DNA of 64,000 nucleotides, taken from Dactylellina haptotyla (taxonomy: Eukaryota; Ascomycota; Orbiliomycetes; Orbiliales; Orbiliaceae). The stretch spans positions 496,001-560,000 of the forward strand of contig CM062387.1 in assembly GCA_031310005.1 (NCBI GenBank), given 5' to 3'. This document shows positions 1,152 to 63,597 of the stretch, one piece after another. The translations under genes and the position numbers were made by a program. Numbering within the stretch: position 1 is the stretch's first letter; every line of letters begins with the position of its first letter. A model generated the notes under the pieces. That model was given only the letters and a program-made list of their open reading frames with translations. It was not told the DNA's origin and ran no database searches.

Positions 1152-1950
1152 GCTGTATATTCCGATTTTTTCAATAAACGCTTGCTCGTAGTTTAGCAAC
1201 CACGTCACCCTCGTCGTTTTTCAAAATGCCTCTATTGTTCTTATTTTCGCGTAAAACTCCGTGCCTGATTCGGCTGTCGTTATCATTTGTTGCATTTTTG
1301 CGCAGCTATATTGTTACCTCGGCTAGCCCTAGGTATCGAGAGGTACTTGATAACGATATAATTAGCAGTCCCAGTAAAAAAAAATTGGTGACATTTTATC
1401 GTGTGTAGGAAACACGGCAAGATTTACTACTGATTCGCCCATGTGAGTGTAGTGATTTGTACAGATACTTGCCAATTCTGTCTCGTGGTAGATGATCATG
1501 GGCGGAAGCGCAATCCTCCAGGCCTTTGAATATACATTTACTCAGTAAATACCATCTTGCCGAATCGAAATGCTCTATAAATGCCGTACATTTCATTGCA
1601 TTGCATAGCCATTGGTTAGGAATTGTATTGCACTGTACGAATCCTTTTTTCAACGTCAAATCCCCATAGTAAAGTTCTAGCGCATGGAACAGAATCTGGA
1701 ATGAGCCAATAGAATATAGTCTGACTTTGGTACTTCTCCTGGAGCTAGAGCATCCTTCGGCCTTCTGCTTAGTCAATCGACCTCCTCCCAACACAGCGCG
1801 TTGATGTGTTGGAGTTCCCCTCTCTGTCCAGAAGCGCACGAGCAGTGACTCGACTGGGACGACATGCATGAAGGCTGTGCGCGGCGCCGTTGATGTTAAA
1901 ACACCAGCCGTAGCCTGGAAATTGAATCCCCAGAGCTTCTATCAATTACA
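1152..1950. other. intergenic, no supported gene
   Basis: Eight hundred bases between the acidic hypothetical gene and F-box gene 1. A 157-codon open frame on the minus strand (1396-1869) has no recognisable domain and unbiased composition. I treat the stretch as the downstream region of the first gene and the promoter of the second. Confidence 0.5.
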
Positions 1951-3294
1951 ATGACCATAGCGACCATTTTGACCATAGGCAGGGCGCTGCCGGGTGAAGA
2001 ACCGGAGCCGTCGCCTCGCGAAGACGTCGGATCCGTGCCGGACATCTTCCGAATACCAGAGATCCTGACGCTCATCCTCTCCCACCTCCCACCCGTATAC
2101 CTGGTCACTTCCGCGCGTCTCGTCTGCAAGGCGTGGAAACATGAGATCGAGACCGATCCGATCCTCCGCTGGCGGTGCTGGGTGCCCAATCGCGACCGAT
2201 ATCTACCCGAGAAGAAGGCGGCGGCAGAAGGCGGCAGGAGTAACGTCTTGGATGGCATATCCCTTCCTCCGCCCAGTATACGGGACGAATATTCAAATAT
2301 ACACTGCAAATGCAGCCCGTCGAGGTCGCCGTCGTCAAACTGGGTTTGCAACACACACATCTACACGGATTTGTTCGAGGTGCATCCGGTAGCCCTGCAT
2401 TTTCTACAAATATACTGGCGAAGGTTTATGCGGGTACCGCTGGCGAAAGCGGAGGAAATTGCGGCCGCCAATTCTCGCGATGCTCTGATGGACGAGCTGG
2501 TGGCTCTCATTAAGCCGAAGCTGAAGGAGTTCGAGACCGCCGTGCTGGTGGATACCCCGGATGGAATCCGCCTCAACACATCCAATCGGCTGATACGGCC
2601 GGAGACCATGTCTGCCAAGGTGTACCTTTACTGTGGAATCCAGCACGAAAGCCTGATCGAGACGATCTTGTATGACAATGGGACAAGAGCTGTTCCCTTA
2701 TGTCAGAGCTCACGGACGAGTCGGCGAAAGATGCTTGCCGTGAAGGATCTGGTGTATAATGTTATGCACCGCTCGTCGTATGGCGACACTGATATCAACC
2801 AAGTTCGAAAGAAGCAAGAGGAAGAAATCAATAACGATACAAAAAATATGGATTCAGCAGAATACAAATTGGATATTCCCGATACAGAGAATGTCGAAAA
2901 GGTCGAACCCTCAGACGGCAGCGACGAGGTTCCGAAATATTACACTGTGTTGATACACGTCGAAGGCAAGAATGACACATCAATGCCCAACCAACGCCGC
3001 GGTGCAATAGAAGATACTGAAGTAGAAATCACATTAGCACTATTCGAACCGTATGATATAGTCAGTGTTAGAAGCCGCCGGTTAGCTCATAGCATACAAT
3101 CTGTCCGCGCGAGGTGTTTGGCCCGCTATTCTCCTTTCTTGGAACCAAGGAATTGGAATAAAGACTTTGTTCCCAAGAAATCACCTTGGAGAAGATGGGC
3201 AAGAGATAAGAAACCCAAGATCGGTGACCTGATGCCTGAATACGCTGAAGTGTACGAGTACTACCGCTCTCAGGGTGGTATTACGGACGAATGA
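1951..3294 (+). CDS. F-box protein 1 (447 aa)
   Basis: Intronless gene for an F-box protein, expected to bind Skp1 and present a substrate to an SCF ubiquitin ligase. The F-box lies at about residues 32-72 (IPEILTLILSHLPP, then TSARLVCKAWKHEIETDP and a terminal WRCW), the usual Pro-Glu-hydrophobic start and conserved Trp of the family. The middle (residues 100-260) has no recognised repeat, and the region at 290-320 is Glu/Asp/Asn-rich and probably disordered. Near residue 360 it has VEITLALFEPYDI, a motif also present in F-box proteins 2 and 4 of this window. The C-terminus is basic. The ATG at 1951 is the first in a frame preceded by stops. The F-box call is secure; the substrate is unknown. 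Confidence 0.88.
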   Translation: MTIATILTIGRALPGEEPEPSPREDVGSVPDIFRIPEILTLILSHLPPVYLVTSARLVCKAWKHEIETDPILRWRCWVPNRDRYLPEKKAAAEGGRSNVLDGISLPPPSIRDEYSNIHCKCSPSRSPSSNWVCNTHIYTDLFEVHPVALHFLQIYWRRFMRVPLAKAEEIAAANSRDALMDELVALIKPKLKEFETAVLVDTPDGIRLNTSNRLIRPETMSAKVYLYCGIQHESLIETILYDNGTRAVPLCQSSRTSRRKMLAVKDLVYNVMHRSSYGDTDINQVRKKQEEEINNDTKNMDSAEYKLDIPDTENVEKVEPSDGSDEVPKYYTVLIHVEGKNDTSMPNQRRGAIEDTEVEITLALFEPYDIVSVRSRRLAHSIQSVRARCLARYSPFLEPRNWNKDFVPKKSPWRRWARDKKPKIGDLMPEYAEVYEYYRSQGGITDE

Positions 3295-3841: not shown

Positions 3842-5559
3842 ATGAAGTTCACCGATATTTTCGCAGCTTATACACTGCTTTCAGTGTCATACGCAACAAG
3901 TATCCCAACAGGCTTTCAGCAGCGCTGCTCCGAGCTAGCGAAGAGCTTCCGCCCAGATGATCGAACTACAGTTCTTCTCTCCGAGTTCGTTTCCGCCGGC
4001 TCCAATGTTACCAACCTGGATAACCACCCAACGTGTCAGAAGAAACCGTTCGTAACAACGCTGGCGGATATGTGCCGTCTGCGTTTGAATGTAGAGACGA
4101 GCAGTAGCTCTGGTATCATTATGGAAGCTTGGATGCCTGCAAATTGGAATGATAAGAGCAAGAGGTTTCTGGTCATTGGCAATGGCGGACTGGGTGGATG
4201 CACGTATCAATATCCAAATGTCAAAAAGTGGCGAGCATTTACTAATTTTATGTGCAGGTGTAAGCTATGGTGATTTGGCGTTTACAGCATACCTCGGATT
4301 CGCAGCGATTGCCCATAATAATGGCCATACCGGAGATACCGGAATATACTTTCTCAATCAACCTGAGGTGCTAAAGGACTTTGTCTACCGGGCGTATGTA
4401 TACTTCAATCCTAAGTAACTTCATCTATGACTAACAAATCGTCACCCACAGTGTCGAAACTACTACAAAGGTTGGAAAGAAGGCGGTGACCCATTTTTAC
4501 AAAAACTCTCTCAATAAATCTTACTACTTGGGCTGCTCGACTGGTGGCCGTCAGGGACTTAAAGCCGCCCAAGAGTTCCCCGAAGAATTCGACGGCATCG
4601 TAGCCGGTGCCCCTGCGAACGATAACACTAATCTCGACTCCATGGCTGGTTACTACTACAAAGCTCTCGGAAATCCCGGAGACCCCACCTTCGTGACTGC
4701 AGAGCAATGGGCCGCTATTAATGAAATGGTTCTCGACCAATGCGATAGCATCGACGGCGTCCGCGACCGAGTCATCGAAGACCCAATGATGTGTAACCCA
4801 CGTCCCGAAGCCATGCTCTGCGCCCCAGGACAAACCTGGACAAGCAATCGTTGCCTAACTTCTGCCCAAGTCGGCGCGGTTCGGAAAGTCTACCAGGCGT
4901 TCTACGGAAAGGACGGTAACATGGTTTATCCACGGTTAAACCCCGGTGCAGAAATCATGGCGGCGGCCTATATGCTCCTCCAACCGGCCCGTTACCTCAT
5001 CGAATGGTTCAAATACGCAATTTTCAACAACGAGAAATGGTCCGTCGATCGCGACTTTAACCTCGACGCGGTCGCATACGCCAGCAAGCTCGACCCCTAT
5101 GGAATCTCCACCTGGAAAGATCTAAGCAAGCTTAAAGCCACCGGTCACAAACTTCTCGTCTACCACGGCCTCATGGACGGGATTATCAGCTCCGAAAACT
5201 CGTATAGATACTACGAACACGTTTCTAGGAGTATGGGGCTTCCGTCCGACAAGTTGGACGAGTTTTATAGATTCTTCCCGATCCCAGGACACGGGCATTG
5301 TTTGGGCGGTAACGGAGCATGGTTTATCGGGGCCGCGGTGCAATTTCTTACAAAGGGAGTGACCGAGATCCCTACTGAGGGAGGTGTGTTGATGAGTATG
5401 GTTAAATGGGTGGAAGAGGGAGTTGCGCCGGAGAGGATTGTGGGTAGGAATATCACCTCTGATGGAGAATTTGGGGTCAAGGAGCACTGTAAATGGCCAA
5501 AGAAGAATGTGTATCTTGGAGGAGATGCCAGTCAGAAGGAGAGCTGGGGTTGTCAATAA
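3842..5559 (+). CDS. secreted tannase/feruloyl esterase family protein (532 aa)
   Basis: Predicted secreted serine esterase of the tannase/feruloyl esterase family, which releases ferulic or gallic acid from plant wall esters or tannins. Proposed exons: 3842-4203, 4265-4393, 4452-5559, with phase kept and CTAAC-type branch sites in both introns. The N-terminus MKFTDIFAAYTLLSVSYATS is a signal peptide. The family's CS-D-HC arrangement is complete: GCSTGG gives Cys192-Ser193 (nucleophile), YHGLMDG gives Asp406, and GHGHC gives His446-Cys447, the two Cys forming the disulfide that holds Ser and His together. DQCDSIDGVRD near residue 259 matches the family's calcium loop in the lid. Length is normal for fungal family members. 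The first intron must end at taag (4264) to keep frame, because the better-looking tgtgcag seven bases upstream leads to a stop; this junction is the least certain. Whether the substrate is a tannin or a feruloyl ester cannot be read from the sequence. Confidence 0.9.
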
Positions 5560-6687
5560 AGTCGTTTGAGGTTCTGGTGTTGGCGGTAATTGTATATTGT
5601 GAGACAGAGTCTTGTCTCGTGACAGAGTCGGTGTCTGGCATGCGAAGCTAGGGTATCAGTTTCTCTGAAGGGCAGTTTCTTTGTATAATATTATTTTGGG
5701 TTTATTTTTGTGGGGCTATCGAGCTCAAGTAGCTTAGCTGTAGGTCCTCTTACTGGCTAATGTTACTGACTCAGTACATGCTATAATATGCCTTTTATTA
5801 AATGGCTGCGGATAGTATTTATATTTGTATCAAGAGAATTTAGCTCAGCGGGCGCTCCAATAGCCTTCCCGACACGTGTTTTATAATGGCCGTGCGCAGT
5901 AATACTATCCGAGTCTGCACGGAAATCGTATTCGCATCCAAGGATTGCCATCCGCACCCCTGTTACAGCTAGCTGCCCTGCAAGCAAAGCAATTGCCAAG
6001 CAATGCGATCGAGACTTTCGAGGCTCTGGAATTTCGAATTCAGAGCTTGTATTGTTTTTAGAGGGCTCGAGTTTTCGGCATTGCAATGTCCTAAACTAGG
6101 CGATCCTTTCCTCGGTTCACCGCATGTACTGTTAACCTGACAGATATTCCGGAATGGGAAAGGTACTTTTCCGTTCGTGCAGCTCCCAGCTCTATAGTCA
6201 GATTTATTCACAAGAGCTGTTTTGGCGATATCAATGTTCAGTTATCCAGGAATGGGCTCAGTATTAAGAAATGGGAACCCCAAGAGAATGGCAATTCCTC
6301 TGCACGTTTCACCCCTTGCGTACTAATAACCTGTCGAGCACACCAGATAATTTCCCAGGAGTTTGCTATAGCCCACTACCGCTTGACCAAATTGTCCGGA
6401 AAAAGCGGTCTTGCATATTAGCCTGGTTTGAAGGTGCACCCATTTGTCTGTCACGCCTTCAGCTGAAACAGAGCTGCATCTAACATACAGCAGATATCAC
6501 AGCCTTTATATACGTAGACCACTCTCTGTAATCGACTCTCTCCTTTCGAAGCTCTTTCTTAGTTATAAGGATGGTCAATGCCGTGGTTTATACGTGATTT
6601 TCTAGTAGTCTTTCACAATCACAACCGTCCGAATAATTACCCAATCAAATTTATCGAAGCTACTCGGGCCTTATCAGCTCAATCAAC
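5560..6687. other. intergenic, no supported gene
   Basis: About 1.1 kb between the esterase and F-box gene 2. Only short overlapping open frames on both strands, none with a recognisable motif. It probably holds the esterase 3' UTR and the promoter of F-box gene 2. Confidence 0.5.
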
Positions 6688-7692
6688 ATGCCTGGAACCA
6701 AACTTGACGCCAGCCCGATATTCACCATTCCAGAAATACTCTTCCTTATCCTTGACGATTTAAGTGCGATCGAACTCTTAACCACCGCGCGACTTGTTTG
6801 TAGACAATGGAAGTCGACAATCGAAACTTCTAAACTGCTGAGGTGGAAGACATGGAATAGAGATATACTCTCACCGCCGCCCAGCCTTCGAAACCAATAT
6901 ACGAGCGACTGCGATCATACGTGTTCCTCACCCTGTGTGGACCATTCTTATTCAAACAGCTTCGAAGTGAGCCCGTTGGCACTGCATCTGGTTGAGCGGG
7001 TGTGGCAGAGATGCATGCGAGCGCAACACGCAGAACAACACAATAGCGAGGCTGTCGATAGCGCAGTCAAGAATCTAAGCTCGGAACTGTTCACTTTTGT
7101 TGGTTCAAAGCTTCGAAAGTTGCAAAACGCTGGCAGTGCGACGAGTCCGATGCAAAGTTCCTCACATCCATCGGCGAACTTACTCCGGCCTAGGTTTTGT
7201 GCTAGAAACATATGGATTTATGCCGGTTCATACCGAACCCAGGAGGGAATGGATACCAGTACCTACCATTACAATTCGAAGGTTCAAACCGGCAGCGGAG
7301 CCCGAGAGACTGTTCAAATCAACACTCTCGCCAATACCCTGATTGAAGGACTGGAACGGAAGGCGATGGATATCGAAAACCCATACTACTCGCCCGCAGC
7401 GAGTGCAATGCAGGATACTGAAAAGTACTACTCTCTCGTCATTAACGCATTTGGAATTCGCGACCCAAAGGATTCCGACATCAAAGAAGTAGGGGATACG
7501 GAAATTATTATCAAATTGCAAATGTTTGAGCCTTATGGCATCGAAAGCGTAGAAACTAGCAACAACGGAGTGGATCAATGGGTTAAAGCATCACCGCCTC
7601 GCCCAACACACATCGCGACTGATTGGAAGGCCGCTCTGAGACAGGCAACGCACTCTTTGAATTCAGACTCATATATCCAGGCGGGGAATTAG
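6688..7692 (+). CDS. F-box protein 2 (334 aa)
   Basis: Intronless F-box gene. The F-box is at about residues 10-52 (FTIPEILFLILDDLSAIELLTT, ARLVCRQWKSTIE, then LLRWKTW). A short Cys/His-containing linker follows (residues 75-90). The rest has no known repeat until EIIIKLQMFEPYGIESVE near residue 280, which aligns with the C-terminal motif of F-box protein 1. F-box 1 and F-box 2 also share TTARLVC/TSARLVC and the spacing of F-box to C-terminal motif, so they are diverged paralogs 3.4 kb apart on the same strand with the esterase between them. The start is the ATG at 6688; an upstream frame (6578) overlaps it out of frame. The expected role is Skp1-binding substrate adaptor; the substrate is unknown. 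Confidence 0.86.
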   Translation: MPGTKLDASPIFTIPEILFLILDDLSAIELLTTARLVCRQWKSTIETSKLLRWKTWNRDILSPPPSLRNQYTSDCDHTCSSPCVDHSYSNSFEVSPLALHLVERVWQRCMRAQHAEQHNSEAVDSAVKNLSSELFTFVGSKLRKLQNAGSATSPMQSSSHPSANLLRPRFCARNIWIYAGSYRTQEGMDTSTYHYNSKVQTGSGARETVQINTLANTLIEGLERKAMDIENPYYSPAASAMQDTEKYYSLVINAFGIRDPKDSDIKEVGDTEIIIKLQMFEPYGIESVETSNNGVDQWVKASPPRPTHIATDWKAALRQATHSLNSDSYIQAGN

Positions 7693-57408: not shown

Positions 57409-58785
57409 TTATCCAAGATATCCGTTATAAGCGATTTTATTCGGTGTTCCAACGGATACCGGCCCATCTGTGAGTTGGGTGATGATACCAATAAGTGGCA
57501 CCGACAAAGCATACTCCTGGGCTACAAGTTGTCCGGTTATCGCGCCATTGGTGATATTCATAGTAACAGCACTAGGTGTGAGAGATCCGCCTGGCGCGCT
57601 GCTGATAACATAGGCCGAGAGTCCGGCAACGTGAGGCGTGGCCATAGAGGTACCGGAAATAACATTTGTTGAGCCACCGATCCATGAACTCTTCACGTCC
57701 ACACCAGGAGCGAATACGTCGACGGTAGGGCCATAGTTCGAGAAATATGCGATTTTGTTCTGAATATTCATAGCACCGACGGTAATAGCGTTGGGGGCGG
57801 AGGCAGGTGAATAGAGTACAGCAAGTTGTGCGTCGTTGCCGGCTGCCACGACGATAGTTATTCCAGCGGTGTATATAGCACTGACAGCATCATTGGTGGC
57901 TTGCGAGAAGAGACCTCCGAGGGACATACTGGCGACAGATTTGTTTGGTACCGCGTTATCTGCTACCCATTGCATACCAGCAATGACACCAGAATTGCTA
58001 CCGGAACCACTGGCGTCCAGAACTCTAACAGCAACCAACTTGGCCTTCTTAGCGACGCCGTATGTCTTCCCACCAATGGTTCCTGCACAGTGAGTTCCGT
58101 GGCCGTTTCCATCTACACCAATTTGGGTATTGGTGATGAAGTCGTATCCCCAGCTTGCTCTTCCTTCGAACTCCTAAAGGCATGGAATAAATTAGTACGG
58201 TGATTTATAGAAAGCTGTCACCTGGTATAAATTGGCTTATATATTGAGCCTTCAACTTACGCTGTGTTCGACTTCGATACCAGTATCGATAACATAGACA
58301 CTAACACCGGCACCAGCGGTAGCCCCATCGTAAGAATATTTGAAGGAGCCATCATTGGTAAACGCTTTGTTGGAGACGCGTTCAAGGCCCCATTCGGCAT
58401 TATTTTGAACGGTATTGGATTTTACAACGCCGTCCTGCTCAACATAGCTAATATCAGGGGATAGAAGGATCTGTTTGAGAGTATCTGGGTCAAAACCCCC
58501 ACTATATCCCCGGAAACCGGAAGCGAAATTGAATTCCCTCTCAATACCGAGAGCTTTGGCCCCAGTAAGCTTGAGACGCTTAATGACACCTGTGTGTAGG
58601 CTGCCGATAAGGGACTTGTGACTCGTAATAGCAGCGTCAGAAGTTGTGTCTTTGAAAACGATAATATATTTGTCGAGGATGGCATTCGCAGCGCCCAGGT
58701 TGAGAACTTTGAGGAGGGGCGCTGCCAAGGCTTGAGTACCAAGGCCGGTGACCACGAGGAGAGATAAAAGCCTGTTCATCAACAT
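57409..58785 (-). CDS. secreted proteinase K-type subtilisin (429 aa)
   Basis: Two exons, 58261-58785 and 57409-58173 (87-bp intron, GTAAGT..TTTAG). Secreted serine endopeptidase. Signal peptide 1-22 (MLMNRLLSLLVVTGLGTQAL). Inhibitor-like propeptide about 23-120 (KYIIVFKDTTSD, GFDPDTLKQILLSPDISYVEQD). The catalytic triad is complete: Asp167 in VYVIDTGIEVEH, His200 in GNGHGTHCAG and Ser351 in ISGTSMATPHVAG, with the oxyanion Asn288 in VVAAGNDA. The prepropeptide style recalls the extracellular cuticle-degrading proteases of nematode-trapping fungi, from memory only. Such enzymes digest host cuticle proteins. A TATA box lies about 80 bases upstream. The C-terminus (after residue 380) has a short non-conserved extension. 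Confidence 0.92.
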
Positions 58786-60983
58786 TTTGTAGATCGTTTA
58801 TCTTGGCCTGAGGAAGAAGGGATATGGATGAAATGTAGATACAAAGGGTATCAGGTGTCGCCCTTTATAGATCTAAAATGATCGGCTTCTTAATCAAGAG
58901 AATTGCCATCCTTTTATAGATTCTGTATCAAAAGGGATAATTTCGTGGGTGGTATATTTCAGCTTTGTTAGAAGAAGAAATTCCAATTGCTTCCAAGTCA
59001 CAGCCAACGAAGTATCCATGTTTTGCTGCAACGCTTATCACGGTTAGTAGACAAATTTGTTTAGTTCGGCGAAACCCTGAGGCTTAAACTCAAAATGGAC
59101 CATGCATCAGACCCCAAGGACCGATTAAATCTCAAATTGATTCGCTAATCAAGGCAAGAAACACAAGATCCAAGATTTCTCGCCCGCGACAGGGAGGGAC
59201 CCCGGAACCCCTCACCAATCATGCGGTGTTGAACAGCTGAAACTCTTGACAAGTAAAATTTGCGGTGTGACAAACCATCACTGCCCCAACTATCCTGATA
59301 TTGCATAATTTCTTCTCGGCTTCCTTGAGGGGCTGTAGCCGCACCAACACACTCGAAGGGAAGGAGTGGAAAATAACCTTAATGTTGTGTAACTTGCCTC
59401 TCAGCGAACGCTTTCGGTCCGGATGGCTCGAGAGGCGATTGAGGGAAGATGTCGTAGGCAGCCAAAACACAAAGCTTAGAAAAGTCTTTAAAGTTGTAGA
59501 ATTGAAGCACAGCTGATAGCTTGCAGGTGCTGAATCAGGGGCCGGGCCAACAGAGCTCTATACCTCTCCTTTCGATCCCCTTTCGCGCTGGAGCATCTAA
59601 CAAGCTGCATGGGTAGTTTCGTCGATCGATCCTCATCCCATTAGTGGTGCAGGGTTAGGTCATAGCAGGAGGCGGGAACCGATCTAAAAGGCTTGGGTTC
59701 ACTCAACGCCAACCGAGAAGGGATCGCCCGCGCGGGATCAAAGCGCAAATTCAAAAACACCAAGCCGAAACCAATGGCATCATGTCGGTGATTTTTTCGA
59801 ACAATGCAGCCCGCTAGGCTATTGTGGCCCGCAGCAACGAACTGGGGTCCCGAACTGGATTCAAATTGGGGGGTTTGTCCAAAATTCGATCACGATTTGC
59901 TTCGAACAACAGCGCCTCGATGCATGTCTTGTTTTCGGACCCCGCGCACAACCTGATCTAGATCTTGACATGTTGGGCAGTTCGCAGCGGGGCGGCGCGG
60001 TATTTCCAAATGCCCGCTAAGTGAGATGTCACCGAAAATTTCTGACGAAAACTTAGTTGTCCTTTGGTGACCGTCCTCGACGGCGAAAGATCACGGCGCC
60101 CAAGAAGATACGGTATCAAGTCACTAATACCACTATCTGTCACACAGGTGCCTAAATGTCATCTTCCACCAGCGCGTGTCCGGAAATATGCTTGATATAT
60201 GGTCATGGCAGGGTGTCTTCACGACAAACACCAATGCAACCAGCTGGATGGCACCATACCCTTCATTCGTTTCTTTATTTATTTATTAAGTTTGGGGTGA
60301 AAGAATCCTAATCGATTCGTGTATCAAATAGCTTGTTCTACAGTATTTGGTTGTTATTTGGACTTCTAGGATACTGGTAAATTCTGACAACGCATGTTCT
60401 AACAAGCCAACCAGCGAGCGTTCTGGGGTCTAAAGCTCCAATTAACCCAATTCACTGGTGTGTGGAGTCCCTTGTCCAATTTCGAAGCATTTTAAACTTC
60501 GAAGGGCATATGTGTACAGCACTTCGGGTAAGAAGAAGATTTTTTTGCCGACCAGTTCTGGTGCAGAGCTTTTTCGAGACATATTGTCTTCTTTGATCAA
60601 CCAAAATTTACCTAGCTGAGAAACATTTGCTTTGCCTTTTTGCTTGCCTTTGGCCGCCCCAGGTAAACTCGTTTCCTGCTTAGCTTTAGATCCTCTGAAC
60701 CCGTTGAAAATAATAATAATAATACGCATATGGCCAAAAGCTTCAAGTTTATGGTACTTCGTTCCCATCATTAGAGCTTTACATTGAAGACAAGAGTATA
60801 GCTAACTTGTTCGCATTGGGTCGGTATCATCTGCAAGCCTGGAAACGATTACAACAACCACTCAATTTTACCTTCGACCGTCACTTAAACCTATGCGTAA
60901 CAGAGCATCATAATAAGATAAAAAGCCATTGAATTACATATATAACGAAGTTCTATAAAAGCGACTTCCTTGGTTTGGCGCCG
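58786..60983. other. 2.2-kb intergenic region, no supported gene
   Basis: Upstream of the subtilisin (minus) and downstream of the F-box-WD40 gene (minus). A 109-codon minus-strand frame at 60442-60771 is Lys-rich without motif. A short (AAT)n run lies at about 60709-60722. Confidence 0.45.
58862..58869 (-). promoter_or_regulatory. TATA box candidate of the subtilisin gene
   Basis: TATAAAGG on the minus strand, 77-84 bases upstream of the start codon at 58785, a good sequence and distance for a fungal core promoter. Confidence 0.5.
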
Positions 60984-63597
60984 CTAGGCTGCGGAAGATG
61001 TCGCAAGACCGAGACTCCTTGTAGTTTCGTTATCCTCGATCGTAGGCACAATCTCTATGAATGTTACTTCTTTATCGCTAATCCCAAACACAAGAAGATT
61101 TCCAAATATTGCGATGCTCGCTCTTGAAGATTCGTATTGGTATGGGATCCAGAGGCGGCGACGATTGTTAACGTATATCCATTGTCCTTCCACTACAATG
61201 GACGGCATGTATTTCTCATCACTTTGTGATGATTCCTCCGGCTTTAATAAGCTCAGCCTGCCGATATCTGTTTCAAGGGATCGGCTATCTGCGGCGAAAC
61301 GAAGTTTCTGGACCCAATAAAACCCTTGCTGAAGTTCTTTTTGAGACGCGATATCCCATAATACAACGGTATAGTCCGTCGAGGATGACGCTAAGCGCAC
61401 GCCATCCGGTGAAAATGCAGCATCGAGTATAGCATCTGTATGACCTCGGAATACCAAGATAGGGGTCCCAGACCGGGCATCCCAGATCACCACTTCGTTA
61501 TCCTTGGAGCCTGATACCAGCTGCTCCCCGTTCGGCGAGAATTGGACAGACCTACAACACTCTGTATCGATTTTTAGGAGAAACTGACGGCACGAGATAT
61601 CCCAAATCGATATAGTTTTGTCATAGCTAACGGCTAGCTGTTGACCGTCCGGTGAAAATGCTGGCTTTACAATCACCATCCCCGGAAACTTCATAGGGAT
61701 CCCAGATGACTCGACCATGGAAGAGGAGGTAATCTCCATAACTACCGTCATGGAAGCTATATCCCACACAATCAGGTCATTATTGTTGTAGGAGGCGGCT
61801 ATTTGTCTACCATTAGGGGAGAAAACTAGAAACATTATCTCAAGGTCGATAAGACCGTATTCGTCATCTACTCGCAGCTTCTTGTCGAGCTGACAGGAAA
61901 TGGGGTCCCAAAATCGAATTGTCCCATAGGTGGATCCCGTGGCTAACTGTTTACCATCCGATGAAAACGCTATCGCCAGAACACGCTTGTTATAGGAGCC
62001 TTTGGACAGTGGAAACTCTTCATCGTATGCTAGCCGGTATCTTCTCACACAGTTAGACTGGGCGACGTGAGAATAGAGCTCACGAATTAAACTGTCTTCG
62101 GGTTCAAATATAAGGCTAGAATATATTTGCAGTGGAGCTCGATCAAGTGGTAAACGGCGTGAGGTCATGAACTTTTCGCTTGCGGAGACTAGTTGTGAAA
62201 GAGCGGCATTTTCACTTCCCTAGCAGTACCCAAGTGCCGTAGATCAGTAAGTCGTTCCGAATATTAGTTTCGTAGATTATCTATTAAATACCTTCACCCA
62301 GGAGCTCAAGGTTCGTATGCCATCGAATGAATACCTGTAGCCATCCAAAATGCCCATGACTTCGAGCCAGTGCAATAGGTGCCGTGAAAGAAAGCCATAA
62401 AGCCTCTGCTCATCCTCTTCTCTACACCTACGCCGAGTGCCTTCGAGATGAGATGTCCAGTACAAACTGGCATACCTCAAATCAGGCGATATTCGATCTT
62501 CTCTAACATTTGCGAGTATTTCGGCATTCGTAACCGTGCGGCCAGCTAGATCGCAGATGTTTTCTCTCAGATTCTGCTCTAAGAAATTAAGGCAGTGCAA
62601 AAACATATGTCTATGAGCTAGATCTGGGTCATCCCAGAAACCCAAAAGCTCCATCCAATCCTTATTTCCCGGGAGGGTGAAACTCAATACGACTCTCAAA
62701 CGAGACCCATCAATGACTTCATAGGACTCTATTGAGCCGAAAAAAGGAGTGGGCCTTACCCGATGAAAAGACGATTTTTTCCCGGTTGCTAGAAGATAGA
62801 ATCAGTATATCACCCCCAATAACTAGTTCCGTTGTTGTTGTGTGTGTGCTGTTTCTCGTCATGAAAATAAACCCACCTTGCCTCAATAAATCCATCCAGG
62901 CTGTTATCAAGTCGCCAACTGTTACCGAATTCGATCCTGTTGAACCCGTGCAATAATTGACGCTTTCTTTATAGTTGCCGCCGTCCTGCTCTCCTTCTTC
63001 TCGCTTTCTTTTCTGTCTTTTTATATCCTCATCTCTTTTATTGATAATGATGGATGAGTTGAGAAGCGGCGAGCGGACGGTCAACGAACTGACAGGAGGG
63101 CTAGTCGCATTGTCGGTGCTGGACCCAAGGTCGAAACGAGCGCAATAAAATTCCCAATTTTCAAGTGCGAGATCTCGATCCTCGAGGGCTGATGACATGA
63201 CACCACTTGGATTTCCATGACATCCCAAGCGCTGAACGATCGGATGGATTGATGTTTTTTCAGATATGAGCCTATCAGTGGTATATCGCTCAATATCTCC
63301 ATTAGGGAGTATTTCTCGGAAAAGCTGCCTAAGGATATGCCGCGATTTCGTATTGCGGATTATCAAATTGAATGTTTGACAAGTCCGAATGACACGAATT
63401 AGGAGATCGCGGTAATCCAGATGTTCGAAAACTTTCTCCCAAAGCGCCGGGGTGAGGCCGTTGAACAAGTTACCGAACAGAAGGTATGTGTGCTTATTCA
63501 GAGGTCTTATGGACCTTTGGATCGTTATGAAATCGCCTTTCGTAATCTTGTCCCACAGCTCCCTGGGGAGTTCTGATCTAGCTGGAATAGCTTCCAT
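60984..63597 (-). CDS. F-box / NLR-sensor / WD40 chimeric protein (824 aa as modelled)
   Basis: Model: exons 62760-63597, 62292-62692 and 60984-62219, in phase. The N-terminus has an F-box at about 48-92 (LTPALWEKVFEHLDYRDLL, TCQTFNLIIRN), preceded by a second F-box-like start (ELPRELWDKITK), then a polar linker with KRQKRKREEGE. The second exon has the helical region that in fungal NLRs follows the NACHT domain (RENICDLAG, DLRYASLYWTSHLEG, LLHWLEVMGIL). The third starts GSENAALSQLVSASEKF and has APLQIYSSLIFEPEDSLIREL, then at least five WD40 repeats (VLAIAFSSDGKQLATGS, AFSPDGQQLAVSYD, QFSPNGEQLVSGSKD, AFSPDGVRLASSSTD). No NACHT P-loop is present. The second junction is strong. The first (GTAAGG..TTTGAGAG, 67 bp) is weak: it could instead be a frameshift near a T6 run or two separate genes. 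Confidence 0.6.

What the first reader, a model, noticed from the sequence alone, without database searches (positions are those of the whole stretch)
60984..63597. F-box domain joined to the sensor half of a fungal NLR (no NACHT)
Seen: an F-box exon is followed on the same strand by the post-NACHT helical region and WD40 repeats, all in phase under a plausible splice model, with no nucleotide-binding P-loop. Known: fungal NWD proteins use WD40 repeats to sense non-self, and F-box-WD40 proteins (as in Cdc4) are SCF substrate receptors. Inference: an NLR sensor may have been captured by the ubiquitin system, turning recognition directly into degradation. The alternative is a broken NLR lying next to an F-box gene.
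Basis: partly seen in the sequence, partly recalled or inferred. Interest (0 to 1): 0.75.

Follow-up and report, generated by a model that had tools for sequence, protein, structure and literature searches.

The report
F-box joined to NLR sensor half
A nematode-trapping fungus carries what looks like one intact gene that joins a ubiquitin-ligase adaptor domain to the sensing half of a fungal immune receptor whose usual switch domain is missing, and a second strain carries the same joined gene.

Summary
A predicted protein of D. haptotyla CBS 200.50 (H072_6691, 818 aa) aligns end to end with a three-exon model: 665 of 817 residues identical, one 1-residue gap, corresponding start and end. Intron 1 is 62876-62789, so the TGA at 62719 is out of frame. 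The NLR half has no stop, where unconstrained drift to that divergence predicts five to six. No NACHT match lies within 115 kb. Four own-genome F-box paralogs stand alone, and 19 of 21 other post-NACHT places have NACHT. Most likely product: an SCF-type substrate receptor whose recognition part comes from an NLR sensor; Skp1 binding and any ligand are inferred. Weak points: no transcript evidence; the CBS 200.50 model is ab initio; codon usage at the junction is inconclusive. F-box plus WD40 is an old design; an NLR half without NACHT in that design was not found in the papers searched. New variant of a known kind.

The parts
62877..63597 (-). Exon 1: start ATG, two F-box-like motifs, conserved NATSPPV and VTVGD blocks
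   Evidence: Translation aligns from residue 1 with P0001; family alignment A1 with four stand-alone paralogs
63343..63456 (-). F-box (PF00646), residues 48-85
   Evidence: 24.3 bits on residues 1-133, cut-off 20.5; paralogs 33-41 bits
63463..63573 (-). Second, N-terminal F-box-like motif (ELPRELW...), residues 9-45
   Evidence: Aligned block in A1; in paralogs L056 and L057 Pfam finds two F-box stretches. In the window itself only the other motif passes Pfam
62789..62876 (-). Intron 1, 88 nt (GTGGGT, CTGAT branch site, TTCTAG)
   Evidence: Only pair of 81 examined with all three consensus signals, and in phase; gives the junction seen in P0001. No transcript evidence
62292..62788 (-). Exon 2: about 48 residues without known homology, then the post-NACHT helical region from about 62645
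   Evidence: NLR similarity starts at 62645; junction residues 241-290 are 43 of 50 identical to P0001; no similarity of this stretch to the NLR winged-helix part
62719..62721 (-). TGA that ends the F-box reading frame if intron 1 is retained; out of frame in the spliced model
   Evidence: ORF list, phase
62220..62291 (-). Intron 2, 72 nt
   Evidence: In-phase pair; gives the junction seen in P0001. Its donor GTATTT is not GTRNGT
60984..62219 (-). Exon 3: end of the helical region, WD40 propeller, C-terminal tail, stop
   Evidence: PF00400 124.3 bits; end of protein aligns with end of P0001
61044..62051 (-). WD40 beta-propeller (window residues about 463-798)

Best explanation
This is one protein-coding gene of three exons (817 aa). 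It arose when the 3' half of a fungal NACHT-WD40 receptor (post-NACHT helices plus WD40 propeller) came to lie behind an F-box gene, and an 88-nt intron now joins the two frames. The N-terminal F-box would bind Skp1 and so recruit Cul1 and an E2; the propeller, on its helical stalk, would bind a partner protein and present it for ubiquitination. With no NACHT there is no ATP-driven oligomerisation, so recognition would lead to ubiquitination (or to guarding or blocking of the bound protein) instead of assembly of a death-inducing complex. Shown: domain order, open frames in the window, no NACHT match, the same predicted protein in a second strain, retention of frame. Inferred: splicing, Skp1 binding, that the propeller binds a protein, degradation as the outcome.
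For: Homologue P0001 aligns end to end, 665 of 817 identical, one 1-residue gap, corresponding start and end. Of the 120 listed proteins (of 488 found) only P0001 matches the F-box family profile, and a search with the F-box half alone, limited to proteins of about 450-1430 aa, finds only P0001. NLR part: 5.3-6.4 stops expected under unconstrained drift over five transition/transversion ratios, none in the window; at most 6 of 1000 simulations per ratio give none. P0001 is a predicted protein and so cannot show stops, but its gap-free alignment in this part means that none was spliced around. The F-box part is the best conserved segment, 113 of 120 (94%) against 221 of 280 (79%) in the WD40 part, Fisher p 1e-4, as expected if it still binds a fixed partner. 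The propeller is predicted complete. Intron 1 has donor, branch and acceptor consensus. Only about 75 nt lie between the F-box-frame stop (62719) and the start of NLR similarity (62645), little room for a separate promoter (inference).
Against: No transcripts. P0001 belongs to an annotation made ab initio with GeneMark-ES (PMC3828140, passages), so the join in CBS 200.50 rests on the same kind of signal. Codon usage at the junction is undecided and leans slightly the other way: fusion frame -0.04, unspliced F-box tail +0.02, true coding 0.055 +/- 0.058, off-frame -0.074 +/- 0.061. The F-box scores only just above its cut-off and its fold could not be predicted (pLDDT 40), so Skp1 binding is a guess. 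Both copies come from one nominal species. Exon 1 alone does not pass the stop-codon test (about 2 expected, 126-160 of 1000 simulations with none).
Confidence: 0.55

Rival explanations
1. A broken NLR lies behind an unrelated, complete F-box gene; the NLR piece is a decaying pseudogene and both gene models that join them are artefacts.
For: The four own-genome F-box paralogs found stand alone; 19 of 21 paralogous post-NACHT places have NACHT 5' of them; in-phase splices are easy to find by chance (26 of 81 pairs).
Against: No stop in the window's NLR half and no gap there against P0001, although about 20% of NLR-half residues differ; 5-6 stops expected. Second intron and C-terminal end intact. 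The joined protein is predicted in both strains.
Confidence: 0.07
2. Two functional neighbouring genes: an F-box protein of 292 residues ending at 62719, and a separate NACHT-less helix-WD40 protein that starts at the Met near 62654.
For: The F-box frame stays open to 62719 and its tail has slightly better codon usage than the fusion frame; the paralogs end soon after VTVGD or carry unrelated tails; the Met is present in both strains.
Against: Only about 65 nt from the F-box stop to that Met; residues 241-290 are 43 of 50 identical in the fusion frame, more than the least conserved coding segments would give (binomial P 0.01-0.03, post hoc; for 265-288 alone P 0.05-0.10; the direct Fisher test of 241-290 against 121-240 gives p 0.11).
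Confidence: 0.13
3. A real fusion protein that is not an SCF receptor: the F-box part no longer binds Skp1 or acts only as a decoy, and the protein serves as a soluble sensor or a dominant-negative partner of intact NLRs.
For: F-box score is marginal; two other places with the same helical region in this genome have no NACHT match and no recognised F-box (L047, L049).
Against: The F-box part is the most conserved stretch between the strains, 94%.
Confidence: 0.25

Closest known systems
F-box/WD40 substrate receptors (Cdc4, Met30, beta-TrCP type; recalled, no such protein was compared here)
   Same: N-terminal F-box, C-terminal WD40 propeller in one chain
   Different: The propeller and the helices before it are related to fungal NLRs; the NATSPPV/VTVGD blocks (DUF6699-like in two paralogs, below that family's cut-off) lie between. 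Own-genome ORFs with both F-box and WD40 matches (C1:1328961, C1:2819721) are separate genes
Fungal NACHT-WD40 NLRs (HET-E, HET-D, NWD2 type)
   Same: Post-NACHT helical region, WD40 propeller, C-terminal tail
   Different: No NACHT match; F-box N-terminus in place of a HET, HeLo-like, PNP_UDP or similar domain (names as in passages of PMC4986451); repeats not near-identical
Stand-alone double F-box proteins of the same genome (L054-L057)
   Same: 28-32% identical to the F-box half, same conserved blocks
   Different: No WD40 or post-NACHT match next to them
Dactylellina haptotyla CBS 200.50 H072_6691
   Same: Same gene end to end
   Different: 18.6% of residues differ although the species name is the same; named only as hypothetical protein

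Membership tests
F-box/WD40 SCF receptor | F-box domain | tested here: met
   PF00646 above its cut-off in the window and in P0001 residues 1-291, but only by 0.5-4 bits
F-box/WD40 SCF receptor | C-terminal WD40 propeller in the same chain | tested here: met
   PF00400; whole propeller in the P0001 model; same chain by homologue and splice signals, not by transcript
F-box/WD40 SCF receptor | Binding to Skp1 and Cul1 | not testable with these tools
   Structure of the F-box part not predictable here
Fungal NLR | NACHT or NB-ARC nucleotide-binding domain | tested here: not met
   No Pfam NACHT match in the two N-terminal ORFs (for the WD40 ORF 25 of 53 families were shown), no tblastn hit in the window and 20 kb upstream, nearest NACHT match 115 kb away. 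NB-ARC was not searched genome-wide
Fungal NLR | Post-NACHT helical region followed by superstructure-forming repeats | tested here: met
   103.7 bits to a profile of own-genome places; WD40
Highly internally conserved WD40 allorecognition NLR (HET-E/HET-D type) | Near-identical WD40 repeats | tested here: not met
   Mean pairwise repeat identity 0.23, highest 0.37, over 5 repeats, ungapped

The most novel reading that the evidence does not exclude
An allorecognition or immune factor that works by ubiquitination: an NLR sensor rewired to the SCF ligase and kept highly polymorphic within one species (18.6% of residues differ between two strains, least in the F-box), with intron-1 retention giving a second, F-box-only product from the same gene.
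Probability: 0.12. Interest if true: 0.85.

Novelty: new variant of a known kind. Interest (0 to 1): 0.6.

Why it matters
If it is expressed as one protein, it shows that the recognition half of an immune receptor can leave the NLR switch and be plugged into the ubiquitin system, and it would give a defined bait with which to find what a fungal NLR sensor binds, which to my knowledge is open for most fungal NLRs. Surveys that start from the nucleotide-binding domain cannot see such genes; one that I saw in passages selected genes by their NB annotation (PMC12258605).

Tried and rejected
Early view that the F-box ORF to 62719 is a complete stand-alone gene (note): it rested on a loose resemblance of its tail to L055 and was given up after P0001. 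NLR winged-helix similarity in residues 241-290: looked plausible by eye, not found by profile; neither real segment was reported, while 971 and 1017 of 2000 shuffles were. Search for a split NLR with NACHT on the far side of the F-box: nothing in 20 kb. F-box 4.5 kb 5' of the C3 NLR: separate gene with other ORFs in between.

Limits of the genome-wide counts. The F-box scans scored 150 of 299 and 150 of 329 candidates and did not list the window's own F-box, so they are incomplete and cannot show that no other NLR has an F-box beside it.

Codon usage: inconclusive. Folding of the F-box part: pLDDT under 50, no use. PDB profile search with the F-box family: best F-box protein UCC1, E 0.046, not significant. 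First homologue search with the F-box ORF alone found nothing; its length limits exclude an 818-aa protein.

Literature. Term searches in main texts find no 'F-box' in five works on fungal NLRs, fungal immunity or fungal cell death (PMC4986451, PMC12258605, PMC9815663, PMC10197012, PMC12881547); supplements could not be read. Library searches for the combination: 0 papers; 3 papers; 62 papers, 15 listed; for the locus name: (0). From these listings I opened passages of PMC11412873, PMC7089950 and PMC3192844: F-box and NACHT are named there as separate families or genes. The other listed papers, and the 47 not listed, were not opened for this question except the NLR works above.

Full report
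Where it is. The window is G000:C9:496001-560000, a genome of 11 contigs. Contig C5 is 3,741,584 bases and C1 is 7,783,607. A published assembly of the nematode-trapping fungus Dactylellina haptotyla YMF1.03409 has 11 contigs, N50 3,741,584 and a longest sequence of 7,783,607 (PMC10580851, passages and section 12). I take the window to be that strain; total lengths differ slightly (39.81 Mb here, 39.56 Mb printed).

What is there. On the minus strand lie an ORF with an F-box (63648-62719), an ORF with the post-NACHT helical region (62801-62277) and an ORF with WD40 repeats (62219-60984). A profile from 21 own-genome places finds the helical region at 103.7 bits, starting at 62645. tblastn with the parts 5' of the helical region from those places (NACHT halves) finds nothing in the window or in 20 kb upstream at E<=0.01, while 20 of their 21 post-NACHT halves hit the window. 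Of the 21 paralogous places, 19 have a NACHT match 5' on the same strand within 1.2 kb (typed); the window has none within 115 kb.

Is it one gene? My first view was no. The F-box ORF has four own-genome paralogs (28-32% identical) that stand alone, and intact NLRs abound. That view changed. A search with the fused model, scored on residues 280-560, has as best hit P0001, H072_6691 of D. haptotyla CBS 200.50, 527 bits, the next being 196 bits (120 of 488 hits listed). P0001 is 818 residues long. It aligns from the first to the last residue with a model of exons 63597-62877, 62788-62292 and 62219-60984: 665 of 817 identical and one 1-residue gap. Its sequence at the junction points to intron 1 at 62876-62789. 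That pair is also the only one of the 81 GT-AG pairs examined that has GTRNGT, CTRAY and YAG, and it is in phase; 78 of 5000 Markov-simulated regions contain such an in-phase pair.

Is the NLR half alive? If it had drifted without constraint to the observed 79.7% identity (420 of 527), 5.3-6.4 stop codons are expected over a range of transition/transversion ratios, and at most 6 of 1000 simulations per ratio have none; the window has none. P0001, being a predicted protein, cannot show stops, but it aligns here without gaps, so none was spliced around. For exon 1 the same test is weak (about 2 expected, 126-160 of 1000 with none). Segment identities are 113/120 for the F-box region, 89/120 for residues 121-240, 43/50 for the junction, 105/125 for the helical region, 46/65 for 416-480, 221/280 for WD40 and 48/57 for the tail. 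The F-box region is more conserved than the WD40 part (p 1e-4). The junction is somewhat more conserved than the least conserved coding segments (binomial P 0.01-0.03, post hoc; the direct Fisher test against 121-240 gives p 0.11).

What speaks against. The CBS 200.50 gene models were made ab initio with GeneMark-ES (PMC3828140, passages). A codon-usage test at the junction does not separate the fusion frame from the unspliced F-box tail and leans slightly to the latter. There is no transcript evidence here. The 48 or so residues after the junction match neither the NLR winged-helix part nor a Pfam family above its cut-off. I put the single-gene reading at about 0.8 and the whole SCF-receptor mechanism at 0.55.

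How widespread. Of the 120 listed relatives only P0001 has the F-box family half, and a search with that half alone finds only P0001 at E<=0.1 among 1316 candidates, within the tool's length limits. The gene therefore appears restricted to this species in the data held. Both halves are far from their best-scoring own-genome matches (WD40 31%, helical region 35%, F-box 33% identical), so no recent donor copies are seen.

Strain divergence. Two strains of one nominal species differ at 18.6% of residues in this protein. I have no other CBS 200.50 protein to compare, so I cannot tell a deep split of the strains from an unusually polymorphic gene. This is the most interesting loose end.

Novelty. 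None of five works on fungal NLRs, immunity or cell death has 'F-box' in its main text (term searches); one of them selected genes by their NB annotation. Library searches for the combination gave few or unspecific papers, of which I opened three in passages without finding such a fusion; most of the listing was not opened. F-box with WD40 is an old design and NLR domain shuffling is well known; the new element is an NLR sensor half without NACHT in the F-box/WD40 layout.

Noticed in passing
L049:1-3326 and L047:185-3281 (G000 C2 near 658 kb and C1 near 6.49 Mb): Two related genes carry the post-NACHT helical region and an NLR-like C-terminal tail but have no NACHT match nearby and no Pfam family above its cut-off in the ORFs scanned; their N-terminus is Ser-rich followed by a region that looks TPR-like by eye. 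Perhaps a second NACHT-less family in the same genome.
   Followed up: partly
window 60984-63597 versus P0001: 18.6% of residues differ between two strains that bear one species name; cryptic species or a very polymorphic gene.
   Followed up: partly
G000 C9:322-353 kb (L054, L055, L056) and C10:2.476 Mb (L057): Family of proteins with two F-box-like motifs and a VTVGD block (DUF6699-like in L056 and L057, below that family's cut-off); three of the four paralogs found lie on the same contig as the window.
   Followed up: partly
window 1900-3294 (+) and 6637-7692 (+): Two further F-box ORFs (PF00646 23.7 and 24.2 bits) on either side of a tannase/feruloyl esterase ORF (4435-5559).
   Followed up: no
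window 57409-58797 (-): Subtilisin-like protease (PF00082, 140 bits on the ORF 57409-58173) just 3' of the fusion gene; such proteases are linked to nematode infection in these fungi (recalled).
   Followed up: no
window 62719-62876 (-): Retention of intron 1 would give an F-box-only protein of 292 residues from the same gene.
   Followed up: no
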